Positions 25,112 through 33,983 of a stretch of DNA of 64,000 nt are shown here, piece after piece. Made by a program: the position numbers and the translations under genes. The first letter of the stretch is position 1. The number at the start of each line of letters is the position of its first letter. Source of the stretch: Sulfurimonas sp. Lineage in GTDB: Bacteria > Campylobacterota > Campylobacteria > Campylobacterales > Sulfurimonadaceae. A model generated the notes under the pieces. That model ran no database searches. It was not told the origin of the DNA and saw only the letters and a list, made by a program, of their open reading frames with translations. The stretch is taken from NCBI RefSeq assembly GCF_028714975.1, contig NZ_JAQTLH010000006.1:61534-125533 (forward strand). The letters are read 5' to 3'.

Positions 25112-25128
25112 ATATTTAAAGTGTGGTT
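25112..25128 (+). repeat. attL core direct repeat
   Basis: ATATTTAAAGTGTGGTT, identical to 33967-33983. Confidence 0.85.
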
Positions 25129-25232
25129 GATTTCGGCTTAAAGTTTTGCAGTAACTTTGCAATAAAATAAGGAAAATAGCACCTCTATAAATCTGTTTTC
25201 TTAGTTATTTTGCAGTCTTTTTGCACAAAAGT

Positions 25233-25249
25233 GGTACAAAAACGGTACA
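25233..25249 (+). repeat. Putative integrase/Xis arm-type site, left
   Basis: GGTACAAAAACGGTACA, identical to 33917-33933; contains GGTACA twice at 11-bp spacing. Confidence 0.6.
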
Positions 25250-25690
25250 GTAGATTTTTGATTATTACATATTTTATGCACATTTAATATATTCATTTAT
25301 CTTCTATCCATATTATTAATTAGAGAGGTAATATCTACTTTTTGTATGGTTGATTCTTGTTCTTTTTGGCTCTGAATACTGGAAATTCTAAAACGACTTA
25401 ATAAAAACTATGAAAGACTAAAAAAACGAGAACTCTACAACCATATCAAAATATTTTAAGTTCTTCATAAATAGTTTGTTTTTAGGCACAGTATGGACAT
25501 ATTTTTATACTAATGTATAATGTTTTCATTAAATATATATAATTAAGTTAACTGATTCTATAATCTAACAATTATCACATTAAAATAACATCAATGATTC
25601 TCATATTCATTAGATTATTTATTATTTGGAAGTGTCGTTTGCTTAACTTCAAACCATATTTATAGTGTTTATTTAAAAGGAGAGTAATGT

Positions 25691-26740
25691 ATGAGTTTTG
25701 AAATGTTAAATTATAGCGATGTAATGAAAGCTACAAAAGAACAACGAAGATACCTACTACTAGGTAATGGTTTTAGTATGTCTTATAATAGAGATAGGTT
25801 TTCTTTTACTAGTTTATTAGAAAGCGCAGTAAAAAATAAACTTATAGAAGAATCAAGTGCAGTTTATCAAATCTTTAAAGAGTTTGATACTAAAGATTTT
25901 GAAGAGGTTGTTAAACTTCTAGAAACATCAGTAAGGGTTTTAAAGAAGTATGGTGTGCTACATCGTGCTGATGAGAAAAAGATACTTGATGATTCTATTT
26001 TACTTAAAAAACATTTAGTTGAAATCATAACAAATAATCACCCAGAAAAAATAACAGAAATATCTGATGAGGAATATTTAAATAGTGCTAGTTTTATTAA
26101 TAACTTTGAAAAAATATACACTCTTAATTATGATTTGCTATTGTATTGGAGTACTATTAAACTCATGGATTTTATTATTCAAGGTAAAATCAAAAAAGGT
26201 AGATTATCTCCAACTGATGGATTTCATGAGGATGATGAGTTTGGAAAAGACTATGTTATATTTGGAAATGATAGTTCCCCGCAAGAGATATATTTTTTAC
26301 ACGGAGCACTACATATCTTTGATAAAAAAAATAAAATTATAAAAAATACATATTCTAGGACAGATATTGCTTTAAAGGAACAAACACTTGAAAATCTAAA
26401 AAATGATATTTATCCTATATTTGTTTCAGAGGGAACGAGTGAACAGAAACAAGCCAAGATTATTCATAATGCTTATTTGAATAATTGCTATAAAAGTTTA
26501 AGTTCAATAGGTGGTACAAAAGAGCCAAGCAATTTAATAATTTTTGGAACATTACTAAAGACAAATGATACTCACATTAGAGAGGCAATTTTAAAGAATA
26601 AAGTAAAAAATATTTATTTTGGTATATCATCTGAAGCAGAAAAAAACTCATTAGAAGAATTTTCTAAGAAGTTAGCAAAAGCAAGAGTGCCTAAAAAAGT
26701 ATTCTTCTATGATTACGCTACAGTAACAGTTTGGAGATAA
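25691..26740 (+). CDS. DUF4917-like (possibly SIR2-like) protein
   Basis: RRYLLLGNGFSMSYNRDRFSFTSLLE and YTLNYDLLLYW motifs. Confidence 0.6.
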   Translation: MSFEMLNYSDVMKATKEQRRYLLLGNGFSMSYNRDRFSFTSLLESAVKNKLIEESSAVYQIFKEFDTKDFEEVVKLLETSVRVLKKYGVLHRADEKKILDDSILLKKHLVEIITNNHPEKITEISDEEYLNSASFINNFEKIYTLNYDLLLYWSTIKLMDFIIQGKIKKGRLSPTDGFHEDDEFGKDYVIFGNDSSPQEIYFLHGALHIFDKKNKIIKNTYSRTDIALKEQTLENLKNDIYPIFVSEGTSEQKQAKIIHNAYLNNCYKSLSSIGGTKEPSNLIIFGTLLKTNDTHIREAILKNKVKNIYFGISSEAEKNSLEEFSKKLAKARVPKKVFFYDYATVTVWR

Positions 26741-26795
26741 TTAATATGAATATAAAAATTTTACCAGTTTATAATAGTAATTCAAGTGCTAAACT

Positions 26796-27284
26796 ATGGA
26801 AATAGATTTTAACGCAATCATCAATGGTGCTTTATCGTTTGTTGTTTTATTAATACTGAAGGCATTGCTTGACTTTAAAATTGCTCCGTTTTTTGTTAAA
26901 TATTTTTATTGGTTGCCAGTCAGGAATTATTTTAGAAGTAAACCAACTCAAATTACCGGAGATTGGGAACAATTATGGGGTTCGGCAAAAAGTGAGAACT
27001 TTCTTGAAGATATAGATAGACATAGTTATACAAATATTAAACAATTTAATTCTTATTGCTATGCTGAATTTATCTCAAAGGGAATAACATACATTATTTT
27101 TGGAAGAATAATTAATAACCATTTTGTTGGTGATTGGTATGACAAAAAAGATGATTTAGGTTATTATGGAGCTTTTCAGCTAGAAATTACTAATTCAAAT
27201 AATATGAATGGAATGTGGATAGGTCATTCAAAAGTAACTCATATAGTCAAGGGTGACAAGTGGAGTTGGAAGAAAATAGAATAA
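26796..27284 (+). CDS. Hypothetical protein: N-terminal TM + beta-rich domain
   Basis: Hydrophobic segment GALSFVVLLILKALLDF then GDWEQLW...GRIINNHFVGDWYD...MNGMWIGHSK beta-barrel-like pattern. Confidence 0.5.
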   Translation: MEIDFNAIINGALSFVVLLILKALLDFKIAPFFVKYFYWLPVRNYFRSKPTQITGDWEQLWGSAKSENFLEDIDRHSYTNIKQFNSYCYAEFISKGITYIIFGRIINNHFVGDWYDKKDDLGYYGAFQLEITNSNNMNGMWIGHSKVTHIVKGDKWSWKKIE

Positions 27285-27385
27285 TTGTCAATGTGAAAAA
27301 TAAGATTTTTTATATATTCATTATTTGAATTATAAATGAAGTATTTTAAGTTTTATTAGGTTCACTTTAGGATACAATATTTCCG

Positions 27386-27556
27386 CATTTCCTAGCTTGG
27401 CTTAAATCAGAATAGATTTTATAGCTTGTTGCCAGGTGTATAGCCTTGGTCGAATTTAATTGTACCGCATTGTTTGTAAAGCCCTTCTTTTAGAGCTTTG
27501 CAACATTCGTTACAAAGCTCTAAAAGAATGTCTTTACATCTTAAAAGTAGGAAATG
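27386..27556 (+). ncRNA. Retron msr-msd ncRNA (predicted)
   Basis: a1 CATTTCCTA (27386-27394) and a2 TAGGAAATG (27548-27556) are perfect complements; TAGC context gives candidate branching G at 27395; msd hairpin 27475-27538; followed by effector and RT. Confidence 0.82.
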
Positions 27557-27557
27557 A

Positions 27558-27579
27558 GAACAGGACTTCAATCCTGTTC
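27558..27579 (+). promoter_or_regulatory. Hairpin/inverted repeat between ncRNA and effector start
   Basis: GAACAGGA-CTTCAA-TCCTGTTC perfect 8-bp inverted repeat, 11 nt before ATG 27591. Confidence 0.6.
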
Positions 27580-27590
27580 TAAAATATTTA

Positions 27591-28496
27591 ATGTCTATTA
27601 TCTCGTATGAACAGGTTAAAGAACGTATTGAAGAACTTATCTTCATTTTTAAAGCACCAAAATCACTTAAAGAGCATTTAGAAATTGTATTTGTCTTTGG
27701 TGGAACTAGCAAAAATCTACAAGATACTACTCGCGAACAATTTTTATCTTATGCAATTTCTTGTGATACACCTTTTAAGTTTATTACAATTGAAGCTATC
27801 TATAATGATTTAAAAGAATTTAGTAATATTGGACATGGTATTACCGCAAAAAGAACAGCATTAGTAGAGTTAGAACTATATGCTATCAAACAATCTTACT
27901 CATTAGTTATTTTTCCTGAAAGTGTAGGCTCATATGCTGAATTGGGCTATTTTACAGCAATTCCTGAAACAAAAGCAAAAATTTATGTTGCTAACCATTA
28001 TGATTTTGCAAGTGCAAACTCTTATTTAAACCATATTATAGATGTCATTCATAACAATAAGGATATCAGACCATTACTCATGGATTTTAAGTCTGCAACA
28101 AAGACTACAAAATTCGAAGAACTGATTACAAATCTTACTAAAGATTACACTAATAAACATTCGTCAGTCAGACTTACAGAAAGTGAATTGTTTCCATTGT
28201 CGGTTACATATGAAATTATTAAACTACTTCCTACTTTAACATATAAACAATTGCAAATGGCAACGGAAATGATTTTAAAAGAATTTACTTCTGTATATAA
28301 AAGTAAAAATTTCACAACCATAATATCAATATTAGTAGTTTCTGATTTAATTAGAAGAGTTATACTAGAAGATTTTATCTATTTTACTCCAGTTAATAGT
28401 GAATACTCATTATTAGATATAAAGTTGACGGAACGGGAAAAAGCAAGACTGCTTTTTTTACAACTTCAATATAAAGAAGAAGGAGAAGCTGTATGA
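27591..28496 (+). CDS. Retron effector: nucleoside deoxyribosyltransferase-like N-terminus + C-terminal HTH-like region (type II-A)
   Basis: VFVFGGTSKN, SLVIFPESVGSYAELGYF motifs; position between ncRNA and RT, overlapping the RT start. Confidence 0.8.
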   Translation: MSIISYEQVKERIEELIFIFKAPKSLKEHLEIVFVFGGTSKNLQDTTREQFLSYAISCDTPFKFITIEAIYNDLKEFSNIGHGITAKRTALVELELYAIKQSYSLVIFPESVGSYAELGYFTAIPETKAKIYVANHYDFASANSYLNHIIDVIHNNKDIRPLLMDFKSATKTTKFEELITNLTKDYTNKHSSVRLTESELFPLSVTYEIIKLLPTLTYKQLQMATEMILKEFTSVYKSKNFTTIISILVVSDLIRRVILEDFIYFTPVNSEYSLLDIKLTEREKARLLFLQLQYKEEGEAV

Positions 28497-29434
28497 GCTA
28501 TTTTCAAAATGCAATAGAAAGTGAATTTTCAGAGACTTTTTCTTATTTATATAAGTTTGCATATAGTGCTTCAAGAAGATATAAAACTTATTCTATTCCA
28601 AAACGTACATCAGGTAATAGAATTATTTCTCAACCATCTAGAGAACTTAAAAGTTATCAACGGTATATAATTTCTAGTATTTTGGAACAATTTCCTATAC
28701 ATGAGTCTGTATATTCATATCAAAATAATAAGAATATTAAAAAGATGGCAACTAATCATTTAAATTCAAGGTTTCTATTACGAGTTGATTTTAGTAATTT
28801 CTTTCCGTCAATTAAAGGTGAATATCTTAGAGAATTTTTTCAAAAGAATATGCACTTCTTAGAGAATCCATTAACTGATACAGATATTACTTTAATAAAT
28901 CTTTTTGTATTTAGAAGTAATAAACTTACTATTGGTGCCCCTTCTTCTCCTATCATAAGCAATATAATATTATATGATTTAGACGAATATTTATCTAATA
29001 TATGTACAAAAAAACGAGTTACATATACTAGATATGCTGATGATTTATATTTTTCTACATCAGAGCCTAATACATTAAACGAAATATTGCAATTATTAAA
29101 AGAGTATTTAAAAGATTTTTTTATTAAATTATTGGTTAATGAAGATAAAAATATTTTTACGTCCAAAAAAAGACGACGACAAATTACAGGATTGACGCTT
29201 ACGACTAGTAATAGCATATCTATTGGAAAAAAGAAAAAAAGAGAAATCAGGACTCTAATTTATAAATATTCTACAAACAATATAGAGCTTAATGAACTTA
29301 GCTATTTAAAAGGTTATCTCCCTTATTTATATTCAATAGAACCATCCTATATAGATAATTTGAAGAGAAAATATTCGGATAAAATTATTCAAGAGCTTTT
29401 GCCATTAAAGCAAAGTAATATACCTATAAAATAA
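28493..29434 (+). CDS. Retron reverse transcriptase
   Basis: RVDFSNFFPSI, GAPSSPIISNIILYDLD, YTRYADDLYFS; QITGL near C-terminus matches the VTG region. Confidence 0.93.
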   Translation: MSYFQNAIESEFSETFSYLYKFAYSASRRYKTYSIPKRTSGNRIISQPSRELKSYQRYIISSILEQFPIHESVYSYQNNKNIKKMATNHLNSRFLLRVDFSNFFPSIKGEYLREFFQKNMHFLENPLTDTDITLINLFVFRSNKLTIGAPSSPIISNIILYDLDEYLSNICTKKRVTYTRYADDLYFSTSEPNTLNEILQLLKEYLKDFFIKLLVNEDKNIFTSKKRRRQITGLTLTTSNSISIGKKKKREIRTLIYKYSTNNIELNELSYLKGYLPYLYSIEPSYIDNLKRKYSDKIIQELLPLKQSNIPIK

Positions 29435-29442
29435 AATCTAAT

Positions 29443-30573
29443 ATGTCTTTAGTATTAACAAAACAAGAAATAGACTTTATATTCAACACTCTAATGCCCC
29501 TTAATTTAGGTAAAATAAAAGAAGGTGAATATAAGTCAAAACTTCAACTATTTTTAAATGCACACAATCCAGAAAAACTAACACTTCTAGATACCAAACT
29601 AGAAGAAGAAAATATCACAAAAGAACAACATTACGAAAAGGCTTTTGAAGATACAATAAATTATTTCTTTTTGGAACAAATAGCCAGTAAAGAAAAACGA
29701 TATTTTTCTAAATCAAATCTCTATGATTTTAAAGATGACATATTTTATTTATTTCAATACAACAGTTTTTATCATTATGAAAAGTACATAATATCTGTTC
29801 AATTTTATATGTTTCTTGGATATCTATATAACACATTTAAAACATTAGAAGAATATTCAAGAGACGAAAGACTGTCTCGTGGAACAGCATTTCTAACAAG
29901 CAGTTATAAAGATGGTTTAGAAGCTCCTTTAAATTTTGTTCGTAAACAACTTGATGAATATCAGCCATTTTCTGCCGTAACTGATTTTGGGCATGATAGA
30001 TTAAAAATAAGTAGATTTTCTATAAAAACCTTTCGTAACCATATAAATATAGCTAATTTTTTTATTACATTAAATGCAATGCATGGTTTTAACAAGTTAA
30101 AAATAGAACTCTCAGATGGTGAAAAAAAAGGTTTTGAGCAGGTATTTTCTTATTTAAACGGTTTGAAGACCTCTAAAGATGAAGTTATACGTAGCTTTAT
30201 GATTAAGGCATATTTCCCTTACTATAAAAAAGAAACAATCAATAAATCTAGACTAGCAAAAATAGTTCATAATTTGGCAGAAAATTTTTTCCCAAATATA
30301 GTTTATGTAAGAGAGGGCGGAAGCTATACAATAGGCTTGAGTCCAAAAGTTTTCAACTATAATATCTATATAAAAACGGCATTAAATGAAAATACTATAT
30401 ATGCCTACGACCATAAAAAAGAATATACATGGCTCATTAAAGGCTCTGTTAATGATGCATTGAAATTAATAAAAAGAATGTATTTAGACGAAGGTCACGA
30501 TGAAATAGTAAATCATCCATTATTTGATAGAACGATAAAAAAACTCGTTAAAAGCCCAATATATCCACTCTAA
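29443..30573 (+). CDS. Hypothetical protein immediately downstream of retron RT
   Basis: 376-aa ORF 8 nt after the RT stop, same strand; no recognised motif. Confidence 0.7.
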   Translation: MSLVLTKQEIDFIFNTLMPLNLGKIKEGEYKSKLQLFLNAHNPEKLTLLDTKLEEENITKEQHYEKAFEDTINYFFLEQIASKEKRYFSKSNLYDFKDDIFYLFQYNSFYHYEKYIISVQFYMFLGYLYNTFKTLEEYSRDERLSRGTAFLTSSYKDGLEAPLNFVRKQLDEYQPFSAVTDFGHDRLKISRFSIKTFRNHINIANFFITLNAMHGFNKLKIELSDGEKKGFEQVFSYLNGLKTSKDEVIRSFMIKAYFPYYKKETINKSRLAKIVHNLAENFFPNIVYVREGGSYTIGLSPKVFNYNIYIKTALNENTIYAYDHKKEYTWLIKGSVNDALKLIKRMYLDEGHDEIVNHPLFDRTIKKLVKSPIYPL

Positions 30574-30722
30574 AAACTCCTATACTTCTCATTAGTTGGA
30601 AAAACTCCTTTATATCAGCCTAGGTCTGACAGTACATAATTTCGTATGATACAGAGTTGCAACAGAATAACCAAAAATGACTAGCTAGTCTCCAAAAAAC
30701 AAATGTCATAGGAGACAAAAAA

Positions 30723-30983
30723 ATGTTAAAACTAAGTGCTGTGTTACTGAACACATTTAAAACAGACGAGTACACAAACAAAGAAACTGGAGTAGTAACT
30801 CCCTCACGTTCAAAGCTACAGCTTTTAATAAAAAAGCCAACTAAAAACGGCTCTATAAAACAAGAGCTCATTGACATAAGTGTCAAAGAAGAAGTTTATC
30901 TCAAACACAAAGATTCAATAGGAAAAACTATTGAGATTGATGTAGGCTATTTCGGTCAAGGAATAACTTTCTTCGGTATCTAA
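30723..30983 (+). CDS. Small protein, filamentous-phage gpV/RstB-like (tentative)
   Basis: 86 aa, beta-rich; AGGAGAC RBS; directly precedes a Rep gene. Confidence 0.45.
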   Translation: MLKLSAVLLNTFKTDEYTNKETGVVTPSRSKLQLLIKKPTKNGSIKQELIDISVKEEVYLKHKDSIGKTIEIDVGYFGQGITFFGI

Positions 30984-30991
30984 CCATAAAG

Positions 30992-31222
30992 CTCAGATAT
31001 TTTACAAATATTTGAGATGTAACGAGCTGTAATAGATGTCGGCTTGTGACGCCTAAGTCACAAGAGACATCTATGCAAGCCGTTACCAATCACACCAATA
31101 ATCATGAAAAATAAATAGTTGCATTGATACTTCTCTGAGGCAAGAGGCTCCATATTTATATGGAGAAAGTATCTGAGAAGTGTCAATTAAATAATTGCTA
31201 GGGGGTTCTAGTAACACCCCCT
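30992..31222. other. Cluster of four strong hairpins upstream of rep; candidate replication origin
   Basis: Stem-loops at 30992-31016, 31021-31085 (core 31034-31072), 31124-31186, 31200-31222. Confidence 0.55.
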
Positions 31223-31260
31223 GACGTAAGTCATAAAGAATATATATAAAGGAATTTACT

Positions 31261-32577
31261 ATGAAAGAAAAAGATATAAAAAATACACCTCATATCAGCG
31301 GTATAGATGCACTCTATTATTTTGCTCAAAGTGGCGGTAAATATGATGAGTTTTATGAAAACATTATAGAGCAGATAGAATATAAAAAAGCAGAGTTTAA
31401 TGCTCTAAATTATGCCTATGATGATAATGACCTAATCATCACTATAAATGATATAGATGTAAAATATAGCGGTATGGGCAGAGACGGTTTTCTCTGGTTT
31501 AACCATGACTTCTTTAGAGTTGGATTTAAAGACTCCCAAAAAGCTCAAAATATTCACAACATCAGAGTTCAGCTTAATGCTATCGGAATATATACGCTTG
31601 GCATAAAATCTTTGCTAGAGTATATCAACACGCAACTCTTAAAAGGTGCTCTGCTTAGTACAAACTATTTTCCAGTAACTAGAATAGATGTAAATATATT
31701 TGTACAGCATAACTTCAACTATCTACGCAAAGAGATGATACTCTCTAAGAAGAAAAATCACTCTGCAAACATAGCAGAGCGTTCAAGCGGTTATGAACTT
31801 GAAACCTACTATGTAGGTAAAAAACCTTTTTTGCTTAGAATCTACAATAAGATGAAAGAGTTGGAGACTGCATCAACCGCAAAAAAAGAAATTATGTATA
31901 ACTACTTCGGAGTCAATGGACTGGATATTAAAAAACCTGTATTTAACGTTGAGTTTGAACTTCACCGTGAGTTTTTAAAAGAGTACGGCATTGATACTAT
32001 AGAGGATGCATTAAGTCGTTCTCAGAGCTTGTTTGAGCTTGGATGTAAGTTTATAAAGCTGATTGACTCATCATCACTTACAGAGGCTCAAATTAACTCA
32101 TCAAACCGCAAACGAGCAGATGTCTTGCCTATTTGGGAATTTATCTCCACTCACTATGACAATAAAGATTTTATGCAGATAACTACACCTTTGGAGAAGA
32201 TAGAGAAGATATCTTACAGATACTCTTTAGAAGATGCCCGTAAACCTATTAAGAGACAGATTACAAGATTGCTGCTGCATGATAATGCTCCTACACTCTT
32301 TTACTTCTTGGAACTGTTACAGAGTGCTGAGGAAGATTACAAGCTCCGCCAAAACATCAAAAAGTTTCATAATGAACATAAAGAGGCAGAGAAGCCGAAA
32401 ATCACGGATGACTTAAGAAGCTACTCGGATGATGGATTAATAAGCTATGAAAAAGCACTCTCCAAAGAGATGAGCGGTGTAATGCCTGACAATGAACTTT
32501 ATGACGAGCTGCTCTATAAGTATGATGCCATTGATGATGAGCTTGTAAGACGCGGTCTTAGAAAAATACCTTTCTAG
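31261..32577 (+). CDS. Replication initiation protein, Rep_trans-like (rolling-circle)
   Basis: TRIDVNIFVQHNF, KKPFLLRIYNKMKELE, VFNVEFELHREFLKEYGIDT. Confidence 0.65.
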   Translation: MKEKDIKNTPHISGIDALYYFAQSGGKYDEFYENIIEQIEYKKAEFNALNYAYDDNDLIITINDIDVKYSGMGRDGFLWFNHDFFRVGFKDSQKAQNIHNIRVQLNAIGIYTLGIKSLLEYINTQLLKGALLSTNYFPVTRIDVNIFVQHNFNYLRKEMILSKKKNHSANIAERSSGYELETYYVGKKPFLLRIYNKMKELETASTAKKEIMYNYFGVNGLDIKKPVFNVEFELHREFLKEYGIDTIEDALSRSQSLFELGCKFIKLIDSSSLTEAQINSSNRKRADVLPIWEFISTHYDNKDFMQITTPLEKIEKISYRYSLEDARKPIKRQITRLLLHDNAPTLFYFLELLQSAEEDYKLRQNIKKFHNEHKEAEKPKITDDLRSYSDDGLISYEKALSKEMSGVMPDNELYDELLYKYDAIDDELVRRGLRKIPF

Positions 32578-32587
32578 GAGTTAGCTT

Positions 32588-32869
32588 ATGAATGTAGAAT
32601 CATTTGAAAATTTAGAGTTAATTCCAAAGCTTTTAATGCAGATAGAATTGATGGCTGAGAGAATGGCTAAATTGGCACCGCCTCTTACCAGTAAAAAAGA
32701 AGTAGCAAAGTTTTTAAACAAATCGGAACGAACTATTAACAACTACATAGAGCAGGGGCTTTTAAGGGAAAATCATCATTTCTATAGGAAAAATGGTAAA
32801 ATTCTTGTGTTTATAGAGGATGCTATTTTGAAATTTCGTGATGAGCGAGATAAAGGAATAGTAAAGTGA
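32588..32869 (+). CDS. MerR/excisionase-type HTH protein
   Basis: LTSKKEVAKFLNKSERTINNYIEQGLLRENHHFYRKNGKILVFIEDAILKF; overlaps the integrase start. Confidence 0.75.
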   Translation: MNVESFENLELIPKLLMQIELMAERMAKLAPPLTSKKEVAKFLNKSERTINNYIEQGLLRENHHFYRKNGKILVFIEDAILKFRDERDKGIVK

Positions 32870-33945
32870 GAAAGTTAAGATTTAAAAACCGTAACGGTAT
32901 TTTATATTTTGGCGTGGGCGATAAGCTCATATCGTCGAAATTAAAATTTACGAATGTAAATAAAAATATTATTATCGGAAAGTTTAGAGATGGCAGATTA
33001 AATGAGGATTTAGGCATAGGTGTCAATGAAGGCACACCTATGATAAATAACTTGTTAAGAGAAGTTGTAAAAGATAAAGCCGTGTTTGTTAAACACAAAA
33101 CAAATATCGCTTACAAATCTACTTTAAAAAACATCTTGCCATATTTTGAAAATAGGTTAATAACCAGTATCAAGCCAATAGATATAAAAAAATGGCACGA
33201 TATCCTCATAGCTAGAGGATTAAAGAGGCAGGCAATATCAACTGCACGAGTTCTTTTAAAAGAAGCTTTTAATATCGCCATAATGAGTGAATTTGTAGAG
33301 ACTAATCCAGTAATGATGGTTCAGATTCCAAGTATGAAAAAAGTAAAGAAAAAACAGAAGCCTTTTACTTTGGATGAGATTGATTTAATCCTAGATAATT
33401 GTCCAAATCAGCATATAAAAAACTTTCTCGGCATATCTTTTTTTACAGGGATGAGGTCGGGTGAAGTTTTAGCACTGGAATGGGAAGATATTGATTTTGA
33501 AACAGATACGATATCAATATCAAAAACAATTGCACAGGGCATAATAAATACGCCAAAAACTTATTCAAGCCATAGAGATATTGAGATGTTGCCAAGAGCT
33601 AGATATTTTTTTAAAAATCAGCAGCTCCAAACCGGTATGCAAAACAGTTATCTGTTTCTCAATACAAAAAACACTTATTATGGAACTAGTTTAGCTTTGT
33701 ATAAAAACTATAAAAGTATTTTAATGAAGCTAAATATTGAAACAAGAACATTGCACAATACAAGACATACTTTTGCAAGTATGATGTTGAATAATGGAAT
33801 AGACCCAATGTGGGTATCAAATACTTTAGGTCACGAAAACCTAGATATTACCCTCAGAGTTTATGCTCATTTTATGCCTAAAAAAGAGAAGATGGTCATA
33901 GGGTTTTTAGATAAGCGGTACAAAAACGGTACAAGCCATCTCTAA
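32866..33945 (+). CDS. Tyrosine recombinase/integrase
   Basis: GMRSGEVLALEWEDID (R), HNTRHTFASMMLNNG (HxxR), LGHENLDITLRVYAH (H...Y). Confidence 0.93.
   Translation: MRKLRFKNRNGILYFGVGDKLISSKLKFTNVNKNIIIGKFRDGRLNEDLGIGVNEGTPMINNLLREVVKDKAVFVKHKTNIAYKSTLKNILPYFENRLITSIKPIDIKKWHDILIARGLKRQAISTARVLLKEAFNIAIMSEFVETNPVMMVQIPSMKKVKKKQKPFTLDEIDLILDNCPNQHIKNFLGISFFTGMRSGEVLALEWEDIDFETDTISISKTIAQGIINTPKTYSSHRDIEMLPRARYFFKNQQLQTGMQNSYLFLNTKNTYYGTSLALYKNYKSILMKLNIETRTLHNTRHTFASMMLNNGIDPMWVSNTLGHENLDITLRVYAHFMPKKEKMVIGFLDKRYKNGTSHL
33917..33933 (+). repeat. Putative integrase/Xis arm-type site, right
   Basis: GGTACAAAAACGGTACA, identical to 25233-25249; lies inside the integrase 3' end. Confidence 0.6.
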
Positions 33946-33966
33946 CCCCCGCAAGGCAGGAGCCAC

Positions 33967-33983
33967 ATATTTAAAGTGTGGTT
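33967..33983 (+). repeat. attR core direct repeat
   Basis: ATATTTAAAGTGTGGTT, identical to 25112-25128. Confidence 0.85.

What the first reader, a model, noticed from the sequence alone, without database searches (positions are those of the whole stretch)
25691..27284. Two unknown genes upstream of the retron: candidate undescribed defence/abortive module
A DUF4917-like protein (LLLGNGFSMSYNRDRFSF, reminiscent of SIR2-like NAD-binding starts) is followed by a protein with one N-terminal TM and a beta-rich GDWEQLW...GDWYD...GMWIGHSK domain. That layout recalls TM + beta-barrel effectors such as CBASS Cap15. Same strand, in the cargo zone of an integrated element, directly 5' of the retron ncRNA. 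Family links are pattern recognition, not a search result.
Basis: inference. Interest (0 to 1): 0.72.

Follow-up and report, generated by a model that had tools for sequence, protein, structure and literature searches.

The report
SIR2-like gene beside small membrane orphan
Next to a retron on a small mobile element lies a SIR2-like gene of an already listed anti-phage candidate family, probably an NAD-destroying suicide enzyme, and a very rare small membrane protein; nothing found shows that the two form one new defence module.

Summary
The two genes are real: 25691-26740 (349 aa) and 26796-27284 (162 aa), on an 8.9-kb integrated element (17-bp att repeat, empty sites found in sister genomes). 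Gene 1 is DUF4917 (PF16263, E 8e-54) and PADLOC candidate PDC-S21 (E 4.5e-102), so not undescribed. Its AlphaFold model (pLDDT 88) matches the SIR2 subunit of SIR2-HerA (E 6.8e-10), and the N-Y-D...H residues of the ThsA/DSR2 NADase pocket have apparent counterparts that are invariant in 19 diverse relatives. It is most likely a SIR2-type NADase effector. Gene 2 matches no family library and no solved structure. It has one strong TM helix and a beta-rich C-terminus; one homologue was found (40% identity, beside a type II R-M system, in a genome without DUF4917). The Cap15 comparison is neither supported nor excluded: no profile hit, one TM instead of two, no SMODS synthase in the genome, unusable model. 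The "module" is not supported: none of 30 other DUF4917 loci has gene 2, and type II-A retrons occur on sister elements without either gene. DUF4917 travels alone, in R-M loci, or beside DUF6232 in P2-like prophages. The element family has a conserved Rep/Int core and exchangeable, often defensive, cargo.

The parts
25112..25128 (.). attL core ATATTTAAAGTGTGGTT
   Evidence: 17-bp direct repeat with 33967-33983; sister genomes G252 and G287 carry one copy and continue into the right flank, i.e. the empty site
25691..26740 (+). DUF4917 / PDC-S21 protein, SIR2 fold, predicted NADase effector
   Evidence: PF16263 E 8.2e-54; PDC-S21 E 4.5e-102; AF2 pLDDT 88; Foldseek 8sub E 6.8e-10; invariant N26-G27-F28-S29, T144xNYD148, H204
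26796..27284 (+). 162-aa orphan: one TM helix plus beta-rich domain with three G-x-W motifs
   Evidence: no hit in Pfam, PADLOC or PDB and nothing meaningful in NCBIfam or PHROGs; one homologue, G116; hydropathy
27386..27560 (+). retron ncRNA (msr-msd) with a1/a2 stem
   Evidence: CATTTCCTA/TAGGAAATG pairing and long msd hairpin, -68.5 kcal/mol; no Rfam match
27591..28496 (+). retron type II-A effector (NDT, STM3845/St85 family)
   Evidence: NF038232 102.5 bits, above cut-off 100; PADLOC NDT_II-A E 2.5e-24
28493..29434 (+). retron reverse transcriptase, St85 family / II-A
   Evidence: NF038233 311.7 bits against cut-off 235; RT_II-A E 1.9e-100
29443..30573 (+). 376-aa protein between cargo and element core
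   Evidence: 57% identical protein at the same place in the element of G456 (L084)
30723..30983 (+). small ssDNA-binding-like core protein (weak G5P resemblance)
   Evidence: conserved in most elements; Pfam Putative_G5P in 5 of 9 members, best E 0.0069
31261..32577 (+). Rep-like core protein, marker of the element family
   Evidence: 38 of 200 genomes of the family; phrog_453 replication initiation in 5 of 9, best E 0.0062
32588..32869 (+). excisionase-like helix-turn-helix protein (inferred)
   Evidence: homologues between Rep and integrase in related elements; function by position and sequence only
32866..33945 (+). tyrosine integrase
   Evidence: PF00589 E 7.6e-24
33967..33983 (.). attR core

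Best explanation
These are two defence-zone cargo genes on an 8.9-kb integrative element that also carries a type II-A retron; nothing shows that they form a dedicated module. The first is a SIR2-like enzyme of the DUF4917/PDC-S21 family. It most likely stays inactive until a phage signal triggers it, then cleaves NAD+ and stops the cell, as ThsA, DSR2 and SIR2-HerA do. The second is a membrane-anchored, beta-rich protein of a very rare family. It may act alone or assist the first at the membrane. Shown here: coordinates, family membership, SIR2 fold (predicted model), conserved catalytic-type residues, mobile-element setting, lack of co-occurrence in the sample. Inferred: NAD+ cleavage, abortive outcome, the trigger, and any role for the second protein.
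For: PF16263 E 8e-54 and PDC-S21 E 4.5e-102. AF2 model pLDDT 88, pTM 0.87; best PDB matches are SIR2 of SIR2-HerA, E 6.8e-10 to 2.2e-7, then Sirt2, ThsA and DSR2 at E 1.5e-3 to 7e-3. N146-Y147-D148 and H204 are invariant in 19 sequences, the others 29-47% identical to the window protein, and match in pattern the pocket residues N112/Y113/D114/H152 of ThsA and N133/Y134/D135/H171 of DSR2 (PMC11263360). DUF4917 recurs as mobile cargo: next to R-M genes, in P2-like prophages, on plasmids. No gene 2 beside 30 other DUF4917 loci.
Against: No NADase or phage assay is known to me for DUF4917; the only paper in the held library naming it lists it on a plasmid. TM-scores to SIR2-HerA are moderate (0.50-0.57). 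The counterpart residues were matched by motif, not by a residue-level structural superposition. Gene 2 has one homologue only, so absence of co-occurrence has little power; the two genes lie 55 bp apart on the same strand and may be co-transcribed.
Confidence: 0.66

Rival explanations
1. A true two-gene module: the TM + beta-domain protein is the membrane sensor or anchor that holds or triggers the SIR2-like NADase.
For: Same strand, 55 bp apart. In 9 of 21 viral-contig DUF4917 loci a different small membrane protein (DUF6232) lies directly 5' of DUF4917, so small membrane partners may recur with non-homologous proteins.
Against: Gene 2 is absent from 30 other DUF4917 loci; its homologue stands without DUF4917 in the whole genome; seven other DUF4917 loci lie beside R-M genes; the DUF6232 loci are one group of related prophages.
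Confidence: 0.17
2. The orphan is a Cap15/OptE-like (S-2TM-beta) effector that damages the membrane in answer to a nucleotide signal.
For: N-terminal TM plus beta-rich domain. The low-confidence model gives mostly calycin-type barrels (fatty-acid-binding proteins) as weak hits.
Against: No hit to PF18153 or to any PDB sequence; one strong TM, not two; no SMODS nucleotidyltransferase in the genome and no cyclase seen in the element. Model pLDDT 44.5, so the fold is unknown.
Confidence: 0.15
3. The genes are accessory parts of the retron system.
For: Directly upstream of the ncRNA, same strand.
Against: Type II-A retrons in G439, G444 and G483 lack both genes, and none of these genomes has DUF4917.
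Confidence: 0.03

Closest known systems
PADLOC PDC-S21 / Pfam DUF4917
   Same: Full-length match over the whole protein; candidate listed in the defence library
   Different: Nothing notable; this copy is 67% identical to one in a type I R-M locus of a sister species
SIR2 subunit of SIR2-HerA
   Same: Closest solved fold; NYD and His pocket pattern
   Different: No HerA seen beside the window copy; 16% identity
ThsA (Thoeris) and DSR2
   Same: Same catalytic-type residues N-Y-D...H
   Different: No SLOG domain or long C-terminal sensor domain; 349 aa in all
Cap15 / OptE (S-2TM-beta)
   Same: Membrane anchor plus beta-rich domain (for gene 2)
   Different: One TM rather than two, no profile match, no nucleotide synthase found
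Defence cargo spots of P4/P2-like elements (PMC9122126)
   Same: Small mobile element with conserved core and exchangeable defence cargo
   Different: Campylobacterota element whose Rep and G5P-like core genes weakly resemble those of filamentous phages

Membership tests
DUF4917 / PDC-S21 | Profile match over full length above the curated cut-off | tested here: met
   183.6 bits against cut-off 28, profile 1-311/311; PDC-S21 339.9 bits
SIR2-like NADase effectors | SIR2 fold | tested here: met
   Foldseek E 6.8e-10, probability 1.00 to SIR2-HerA SIR2, on a predicted model; PADLOC SIR2 profile weak, E 7.7e-4
SIR2-like NADase effectors | Conserved catalytic Asn and His pocket residues | tested here: met
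   N146, Y147, D148 and H204 invariant in 19 sequences; equivalence to ThsA/DSR2 by motif only
SIR2-like NADase effectors | NAD+ cleavage on infection | not testable with these tools
   needs an enzyme assay
Cap15 / S-2TM-beta effectors | Match to PF18153 | tested here: not met
   no hit at E up to 1 for the protein, none in the genome
Cap15 / S-2TM-beta effectors | Two-pass TM element | tested here: not met
   one segment above 1.6 mean hydropathy in gene 2 and in its homologue
Cap15 / S-2TM-beta effectors | Beta-barrel nucleotide-binding domain | tested here: inconclusive
   AF2 pLDDT 44.5 without homologues; weak calycin hits, E 0.17 or worse
Cap15 / S-2TM-beta effectors | Linked cyclic-nucleotide synthase | tested here: not met
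   no SMODS match in the genome; mCpol not searched by profile
Retron type II-A | RT, NDT effector and ncRNA | tested here: met

The most novel reading that the evidence does not exclude
A SIR2-type NADase that works with interchangeable, non-homologous small membrane proteins (the orphan here, DUF6232 in P2-like prophages) as its infection sensor or anchor, on an element that also carries a retron.
Probability: 0.12. Interest if true: 0.7.

Novelty: new member of a known kind. Interest (0 to 1): 0.42.

Why it matters
It gives DUF4917, a name without a function, a structural reason to be tested as an NADase effector, with residues to mutate. It also points to a common family of small elements in this Campylobacterota family that trade defence genes, and to an orphan membrane protein worth a structure.

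Tried and rejected
Sequence search of PDB with DUF4917 alone and with its profile gave no SIR2 hit; the fold search was needed. Searches for gene 2 in viral contigs, plasmids, phages and genome contigs found nothing. A two-sequence profile added only hits of 16-18 bits, several with stops inside, judged chance. AF2 of gene 2 alone gave pLDDT 44.5, so its Foldseek hits are not used as evidence of fold. Rfam found no ncRNA family. DUF4917 has no match in the phage collection at E 1e-5. The DUF6232-DUF4917 pair was not found in E. coli by DNA similarity.

Full report
What is there. Two ORFs lie at the stated coordinates on the + strand, 25691-26740 (349 aa) and 26796-27284 (162 aa). Codon scores are positive only in the annotated frame. 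A type II-A retron follows: ncRNA with a1/a2 pairing, a St85-family effector and a St85-family reverse transcriptase.

The element. A 17-bp repeat, ATATTTAAAGTGTGGTT, lies at 25112-25128 and 33967-33983. In two sister genomes (G252, G287) the left flank runs through one copy straight into sequence like the right flank, so the empty site is seen directly; a third (G572) has the left flank to the same point. The element is 8,855 bp and poorer in G+C than its flanks (0.298 against 0.36).

Gene 1. It is DUF4917 (PF16263, E 8.2e-54) and PADLOC candidate PDC-S21 (E 4.5e-102), so it was already listed as a defence candidate. I aligned it with 18 relatives from one genome contig and 17 viral contigs. 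The model from this alignment has pLDDT 88 and pTM 0.87. Its best solved matches are the SIR2 subunit of SIR2-HerA (E 6.8e-10 to 2.2e-7), then Sirt2, BcThsA and DSR2 with E 1.5e-3 to 7e-3. In ThsA the pocket is N112, Y113, D114, H152 and in DSR2 N133, Y134, D135, H171 (PMC11263360). DUF4917 has an N146-Y147-D148 and an H204, all invariant, plus an invariant N26-G27-F28-S29 start. The equivalence is by motif and order, not by a printed superposition. NADase activity is therefore likely but not shown.

Gene 2. It has no match in Pfam, PADLOC or PDB, and nothing meaningful in NCBIfam or PHROGs. Among 397 genomes of the phylum and 135 of the genus only one homologue was found, in G116, 40% identical over the full length. 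That homologue lies next to a type II R-M pair (D12 methyltransferase and restriction enzyme), in a genome without DUF4917. Gene 2 and its homologue share one strong N-terminal TM segment and conserved G-x-W positions in a domain predicted to be beta-rich. Without an alignment AlphaFold gave pLDDT 44.5; weak Foldseek hits to fatty-acid-binding-type barrels are a hint at most. OptE and Cap15 have two TM helices fused to a barrel (PMC12657218). Gene 2 shows one, has no PF18153 match, and the genome has no SMODS synthase.

Is it a module? I examined 30 other DUF4917 loci: four from Campylobacterota, 21 from viral contigs, five from plasmids, some of them near-identical. None has a gene-2 relative. 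Instead DUF4917 lies beside type I R-M genes (L009, L010, L019, L098, L101; L020 by the same layout), beside type III R-M genes (L008), or in prophages. In nine of the viral contigs a small DUF6232 protein, with two TM segments in most copies, lies directly 5' of it; in L012 this spot is between gpV and gpS of a P2-like prophage. The type II-A retron occurs in G439 and G444 on elements with the same core, and in G483 elsewhere, without either gene; none of these genomes has DUF4917. The module reading is therefore not supported, though the orphan is so rare that the test has little power.

Mechanism. Most likely DUF4917 is a SIR2-type NADase that lies idle until infection and then drains NAD+. 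The trigger is unknown; the protein has no long sensor domain, which leaves room for a partner. The orphan could be such a partner, or an independent membrane-acting protein. This step is inference.

Surroundings. The Rep-like protein marks an element family: relatives were found in 38 of 200 genomes of the family. The order, cargo - ~350-aa protein - small ssDNA-binding-like protein - Rep - Xis - Int, recurs, and the cargo changes: a retron I-C RT-Toprim gene, a type III R-M system, bSEFIR, AAA ATPases resembling PtuA/AriA, type II-A retrons, and proteins without a PADLOC match. Weak matches to a replication initiator and to G5P suggest a link to filamentous phages.

Noticed in passing
25112-33983 and L078-L097: Family of small integrative elements with conserved Rep/ssb/Int core and exchangeable defence cargo (retrons, R-M, bSEFIR, Septu-like ATPases, unknowns); Rep relatives in about a fifth of the genomes sampled from the family; core genes weakly resemble filamentous-phage Rep and G5P.
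   Followed up: partly
L012-L015, L017, L018, L022, L023, L026: DUF6232 gene (two TM segments in most copies) directly 5' of DUF4917 in nine prophage contigs; in L012 the pair lies between gpV and gpS of a P2-like prophage.
   Followed up: partly
L010:9322-10626: A decayed DUF4917 gene whose C-terminal half is fused in frame to a type I specificity-subunit-like N-terminus, in a type I R-M locus.
   Followed up: no
L094:7873-8604: A 243-aa protein with a nucleotidyltransferase-like GS...D.D motif upstream of a type II-A retron on a sister element.
   Followed up: no
26747-26806: A 19-codon ORF between gene 1 and gene 2 that overlaps the gene-2 start; possible translational coupling.
   Followed up: no
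G000 contig C18:3965-5284 (L080): Second copy of the element's Rep/Xis/Int core in the same genome, near a contig end, 77% identical Rep.
   Followed up: no
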